A stretch of DNA of 58,079 nt from Bacteroidia bacterium (GTDB taxonomy: Bacteria; Bacteroidota; Bacteroidia; Bacteroidales; GWF2-35-48): the NCBI GenBank assembly GCA_016212695.1, contig JACREX010000117.1:1-58079 (forward strand), written 5' to 3'. The notes beneath the pieces are model-generated. The model did no database searches. It had not been told where the DNA came from and worked only from the letters and a program-made list of their open reading frames with translations. The position numbers and the translations under genes are program-made. Below, one piece after another: positions 34,801 to 34,932 of this stretch (positions are counted from its first letter, which is position 1; every line of letters starts with the position of its first letter).

Positions 34801-34932
34801 CTACGGGACGAAGGCGAGACGGAGGCCTATGAAGTAGGTGCGGTAGACGGGGAAGGGGTTGAAGCGATAAGCAACCCGACAGTTCCGCGCTTCGCTGCCC
34901 CAACTACCGCCGCGATAAACCCGGAGCGAACC
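34801..34932 (-). repeat. DGR variable repeat (VR)
   Basis: [43 protein letters not shown]; run of NNC codons (TTC AAC CCC TTC CCC GTC TAC CGC ACC TAC TTC) matching the TR-like AAC codons at 33536-33544. Confidence 0.75.

What the first reader, a model, noticed from the sequence alone, without database searches (positions are those of the whole stretch)
34801..34932. Variable-repeat signature in an intact PEGA-FGE surface protein
The last 44 codons encode [43 protein letters not shown]. Between conserved lectin-fold residues there is a run of codons all ending in C (CGC TTC AAC CCC TTC CCC GTC TAC CGC ACC TAC TTC). This is what AAC-rich template codons give after random A substitution. The inferred template is roughly [40 protein letters not shown]. 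The gene is intact, so it may be a frozen product of past diversification or still be diversified in trans.
Basis: partly seen in the sequence, partly recalled or inferred. Interest (0 to 1): 0.82.

Follow-up and report, generated by a model that had tools for sequence, protein, structure and literature searches.

The report
Frozen variable region beside dead DGR
The tail of this bacterial surface protein was once deliberately randomised by a mutation machine (a diversity-generating retroelement), but the machine next to the gene has been broken by deletions, so the present sequence is probably a frozen snapshot; this is a clear new example of something already known.

Summary
The last 132 bp of the 726-aa PEGA-FGE gene are a diversity-generating-retroelement (DGR) variable repeat (VR). 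An intact copy of the same cassette in another Bacteroidetes genome (L104) has the order FGE target, HRDC gene, RT, template repeat (TR). Its TR differs from the window VR at 22 sites, all TR adenines (p=4e-15); the two VRs differ at 21 sites, also all TR adenines. The HRDC gene and RT 5' half are gone; the RT has a frameshifting 157-bp deletion, the TR an 81-bp deletion. No intact matching RT or TR was found elsewhere in the 90.5%-complete assembly, so the VR is most likely frozen, not diversified in trans. Cassette remnants are 94-98% identical to L104, while core-gene DNA is about 71% identical and upstream FGE codons diverge sharply, suggesting recent transfer that joined the VR tail to a different target. 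Degenerate DGR loci and recombined targets are already described: a new member of a known kind.

The parts
34801..36981 (-). Target gene, 726 aa: likely signal peptide, four PEGA repeats, C-terminal FGE-sulfatase domain of C-type-lectin fold; intact
   Evidence: ORF; Pfam PEGA 5.7e-51 and FGE-sulfatase 2.8e-50; AF2 model pLDDT 94.6, best PDB match DGR target TvpA 2y3c by sequence and fold; signal peptide by eye
34801..34932 (-). Variable repeat (VR), 132 bp
   Evidence: 22/22 mismatches to the L104 template at TR adenines, p=3.6e-15
34933..35012 (-). Target codons just upstream of the VR that were shared with the L104 cassette (probable recombination edge near the WEWC motif)
   Evidence: 21/21 degenerate same-aa codons identical to L104 at 34934-35004 versus 59/101 upstream
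34657..34800 (-). Cassette DNA downstream of the VR, shared with L104
   Evidence: 95.9% identical over 146 columns
33728..33858 (-). RT fragment 1 (PIGNLTSQYFANHYL...YVRYMDDMVLW), catalytic core
   Evidence: 98.5% DNA identity to the intact L104 RT; tblastn 61% to RT of G095
33554..33736 (-). RT fragment 2 (C-terminal part ...HAEAIGFRKKIISQLGQVS), joined to fragment 1 by a 157-bp frameshifting deletion at GCACAACGA repeats
   Evidence: 94.0% DNA identity to L104; junction
33503..33553 (-). Truncated template repeat (TR): 81 bp lost between two AACCG repeats
   Evidence: Alignment with L104 TR; VR finds it at 83%
33401..33502 (-). DNA downstream of the TR, shared with L104
   Evidence: 97.3% identity over the TR 3' end plus flank
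33900..34016 (-). Y1 (IS200-like) transposase C-terminal fragment inside the decayed cassette
   Evidence: tblastn 44%, E 4e-6 to the 32766-33110 ORF
33181..33256 (-). Fragment of a VR of the second, Fib_succ_major-type DGR
   Evidence: 83% to the C116 template, 10/13 mismatches at A
32766..33110 (-). Y1_Tnp (IS200-like) transposase ORF lying between remnants of the second DGR
   Evidence: Pfam Y1_Tnp 2.2e-14
32583..32711 (-). C-terminal RT fragment of the second DGR type
   Evidence: 86% aa identity to the C116 RT

Best explanation
This is a degenerate DGR locus. Shown here: the 3' end of the PEGA-FGE gene is a true VR whose template was identical, at every non-adenine base, to the TR of an intact cassette (FGE target, HRDC accessory, RT, TR) in L104; and the window holds deleted remains of that RT and TR. 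Inferred mechanism: when the cassette was whole, the RT copied TR RNA with random bases at adenines and the cDNA replaced the VR, varying about 14 residues on the C-type-lectin face of a secreted protein, so that binding specificity changed while the scaffold stayed fixed. Inferred history: the cassette, with the last roughly 25 codons before the VR, was shared recently between distant Bacteroidetes lineages and recombined onto a different N-terminus; deletions between short direct repeats and transposon debris then destroyed HRDC, RT and TR. The gene stayed intact, so the present VR is one frozen variant.
For: VR/TR adenine specificity 22/22, p=3.6e-15. VR vs VR differences 21/21 at TR adenines. 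RT and TR remnants 94-98% identical to L104 in the same order, with no hit for L104's HRDC/RT-5' segment. Deletions of 157 bp and 81 bp between direct repeats. In 20 VR/TR pairs from related loci, at least 76% of mismatches fall at A and TR usually lies 1.7-1.9 kb downstream of VR. Entropy at TR-N positions is 3.22 bits vs 1.27 in the rest of the FGE domain. Best solved relative by sequence and fold is the DGR target TvpA. No RT of this type in the own genome. TyrRS DNA is about 71% identical between the two genomes.
Against: The genome is a draft (90.5% complete, 259 contigs), so an intact cognate cassette could lie in missing sequence. A misassembly in this repeat-rich stretch cannot be excluded without reads. 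The transfer and recombination step rests on one pair of genomes. Ligand, surface exposure and past activity were not measured.
Confidence: 0.9

Rival explanations
1. The VR is still diversified in trans by an intact cognate TR/RT elsewhere in the genome, and the local copy is a redundant wreck.
For: Remote target genes served by one core DGR are known (T. denticola, PMC4891356). The VR shows no non-adenine change relative to the L104 template. The assembly is incomplete. The genome carries another DGR lineage with an uninterrupted RT ORF and a remote VR-like copy.
Against: The only RVT_1 hits are C116 and C249, both of a different type with Fib_succ_major templates. The VR finds no template except the truncated remnant. 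No FGE-type TR pattern in the own genome. No L104-type RT at E<=1e-60 in the own genome.
Confidence: 0.07
2. The deletions are assembly artefacts and the real locus is an intact, active DGR.
For: Repeats and VR/TR pairs are hard for short-read assembly; the region is rich in short repeats.
Against: The deletions sit at plausible 9-bp and 5-bp direct repeats, substitutions have accumulated in RT fragment 2 (11 in 183 bp), and transposase debris lies inside the cassette.
Confidence: 0.03
3. The C-ending codons are ordinary codon bias or ordinary loop variation in an FGE protein, without any DGR.
For: Loops of C-type-lectin folds vary in many families (general knowledge).
Against: 22/22 adenine-site mismatches to a real template, adjacent RT and TR remnants, and low C use at third positions elsewhere in the gene.
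Confidence: 0.005

Closest known systems
Intact FGE/HRDC/RT/TR cassette of L104 (JACRAL010000112.1, Bacteroidetes NC_groundwater_1592)
   Same: Same template at all 94 non-adenine VR sites; remnants 94-98% identical and in the same order
   Different: Intact RT, HRDC and TR; the target is 335 aa without PEGA repeats
Treponema denticola TvpA DGR (2y3c; PMC4891356)
   Same: FGE-type C-type-lectin target, HRDC accessory; that paper also reports target genes left as remnants in strains lacking RT and TR
   Different: Spirochaete; targets there have lipoprotein signals; accessory gene lies between TR and RT, whereas in L104 the order is target, HRDC, RT, TR; no PEGA repeats reported in the passages read
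Degenerate DGR loci of Thiohalocapsa PB-PSB1 (PMC10907252)
   Same: DGR parts lost through transposon and repeat activity; target C-termini recombined with different N-terminal domains
   Different: There duplication is within one genome; here the sister cassette is in a distant genome

Membership tests
Diversity-generating retroelement (DGR) | VR differs from TR almost only at TR adenines | tested here: met
   22/22 against the L104 TR. Against the 45-bp local TR remnant: 6 of 8 differences at template adenines, the other 2 are positions where the remnant itself differs from L104 TR and both VRs agree with L104 TR
Diversity-generating retroelement (DGR) | Functional DGR-type reverse transcriptase nearby | tested here: not met
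   Only fragments with frameshift and lost 5' half in the window; intact in L104. Filed therefore as a degenerate DGR locus, not a working DGR
Diversity-generating retroelement (DGR) | Complete template repeat | tested here: not met
   TR truncated by 81 bp
Diversity-generating retroelement (DGR) | Accessory gene (Avd or HRDC) | tested here: not met
   Absent from the window locus; HRDC 3.9e-15 in L104
Diversity-generating retroelement (DGR) | Target VR in a C-type-lectin-fold C-terminus | tested here: met
   FGE-sulfatase domain, TvpA top hit by sequence and fold
Diversity-generating retroelement (DGR) | Ongoing VR variation in the population | not testable with these tools
   No reads available
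FGE enzyme (formylglycine generation) | Catalytic copper-binding cysteine pair | not tested
   Best match is the DGR target TvpA, not an enzyme; catalytic residues were not mapped

The most novel reading that the evidence does not exclude
The DGR cassette travels between distant Bacteroidetes as a 'VR tail plus machinery' unit that recombines at the conserved WEWC stretch just upstream of the VR, converting resident FGE genes with different N-termini (here a PEGA protein) into diversified targets and then sometimes dying, leaving a fixed binding variant.
Probability: 0.5. Interest if true: 0.5.

Novelty: new member of a known kind. Interest (0 to 1): 0.36.

Why it matters
It is an unusually legible fossil of a DGR: the template, the intact sister cassette, a diversified product and the deletions that killed the system are all visible. 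It shows a diversified binding protein kept as an intact gene after the machinery is lost, and gives a clean case for studying how DGR cassettes change hosts and targets. The general phenomenon (degenerate DGR loci, target recombination, transfer of DGRs) is already published.

Tried and rejected
Pattern AACARRAACAACAACATHGG at 2 mismatches gave about as many control hits as real hits in many relatives and was dropped. VR-flank and TR-flank DNA was not found in viral contigs, so no phage vector was seen. Action of the genome's C116/C249 RTs on this VR was considered and rejected: their templates are Fib_succ_major type. C249's RT is itself interrupted by a stop and its template-like region shows no adenine bias against the C116 template (13/38). 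The chance/codon-bias explanation was rejected.

Full report
CHECK. The gene and coordinates are as described: ORF 34801-36981(-), 726 aa, Pfam PEGA (four stretches) and FGE-sulfatase. C is the third base of 24.5% of codons outside the VR, so a 12-codon run of C endings is not chance (about 5e-8, post hoc).

REMNANTS NEXT DOOR. Reading on along the minus strand, 33858-33728 encodes PIGNLTSQYFANHYL...YVRYMDDMVLW and 33736-33554 encodes the end of a DGR RT. This runs straight into 33553-33503, [16 protein letters not shown], which is a template repeat with its middle missing. VR DNA used against the whole own genome finds only itself and this remnant.

THE INTACT SISTER. A scan of genome contigs found L104. 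It carries an FGE target with VR, an HRDC gene, a full RT and a full TR. Window VR against L104 TR: 22 mismatches, all at TR adenines, p=3.6e-15. L104's own VR: 16 of 16 at adenines, with one 3-bp gap. The two VRs differ at 21 sites, all TR adenines.

HOW IT DIED. Relative to L104, the HRDC gene and RT 5' half have no counterpart in the window. A 157-bp deletion between two GCACAACGA copies shifts the RT frame, and an 81-bp deletion between two AACCG copies removes most of the TR. Unrelated sequence with a Y1-transposase fragment replaces the lost part, and short stretches of this region recur around the genome. L104-type RT has no match in the own genome at 1e-60; the two RVT_1 hits are of another DGR type.

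FAMILY CONTEXT. Twenty VR/TR pairs in related loci, mostly from Bacteroidota, share the layout. TR is usually 1.7-1.9 kb downstream of VR, and mismatches concentrate at adenines. Across 50 FGE homologues, entropy at TR-N positions is 3.22 bits, against 1.18 at other VR positions and 1.27 in the rest of the domain (caveat: several of these homologues are DGR targets themselves). The AF2 model (pLDDT 94.6) and sequence both give T. denticola TvpA, a DGR target, as the best solved match. [quoted passage not shown] I did not compute exposure for this model.

TRANSFER AND RETARGETING. Cassette segments are 94-98.5% identical to L104, while TyrRS is 70% identical in protein and about 71% in DNA over its main aligned segment. 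In the target gene, same-residue codons are identical at 59/101 positions upstream of about 35005 and at 21/21 from there to the VR. The L104 genome has no other match to the window protein at 1e-20, and its target lacks PEGA repeats. The simplest reading is recent sharing of the cassette with recombination just upstream of the VR. It rests on one pair, and the direction is unknown.

LITERATURE. FGE targets with HRDC accessory genes, and target genes left behind without RT/TR, are reported in T. denticola (PMC4891356). Degenerate loci and recombined target C-termini are reported in Thiohalocapsa (PMC10907252). Frequent DGR transfer is reported in PMC8144416. A paper search for DGR plus PEGA returned one paper, where PEGA appears in a different context in the passages read, so the PEGA-FGE target architecture may be new, but that is a detail.

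VERDICT. Confirmed VR; dead DGR in cis; frozen variant most likely; new member of a known kind.

Noticed in passing
C116 of the own genome (L003:8536-9980, minus strand): A second DGR type with an uninterrupted 408-aa RT ORF and an AAC-rich Fib_succ_major-type template upstream of it; a VR-like copy on contig C139:8900-9047 has 24/31 mismatches at template adenines (p=9e-7), so a second DGR may still act in trans in this genome.
   Followed up: partly
window 32583-33256: Remnants of that second DGR type (VR fragment and RT C-terminus) directly next to the dead FGE-type cassette, separated by a Y1 transposase ORF: two different dead DGRs side by side.
   Followed up: partly
L104:4852-6315: A caspase-like (Peptidase_C14) gene lies directly downstream of the intact TR; possible link to DGR-associated conflict systems.
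   Followed up: no
window 34100-34310: Imperfect tandem repeat of about 55-60 bp (unit like caacctctgacttttgaattacaaccttgtacttttaatgtt) of unknown origin inside the decayed cassette; read by eye.
   Followed up: no
L196 (G092:C5): One RT/TR locus with two different VRs, one on either side, matching one template.
   Followed up: no
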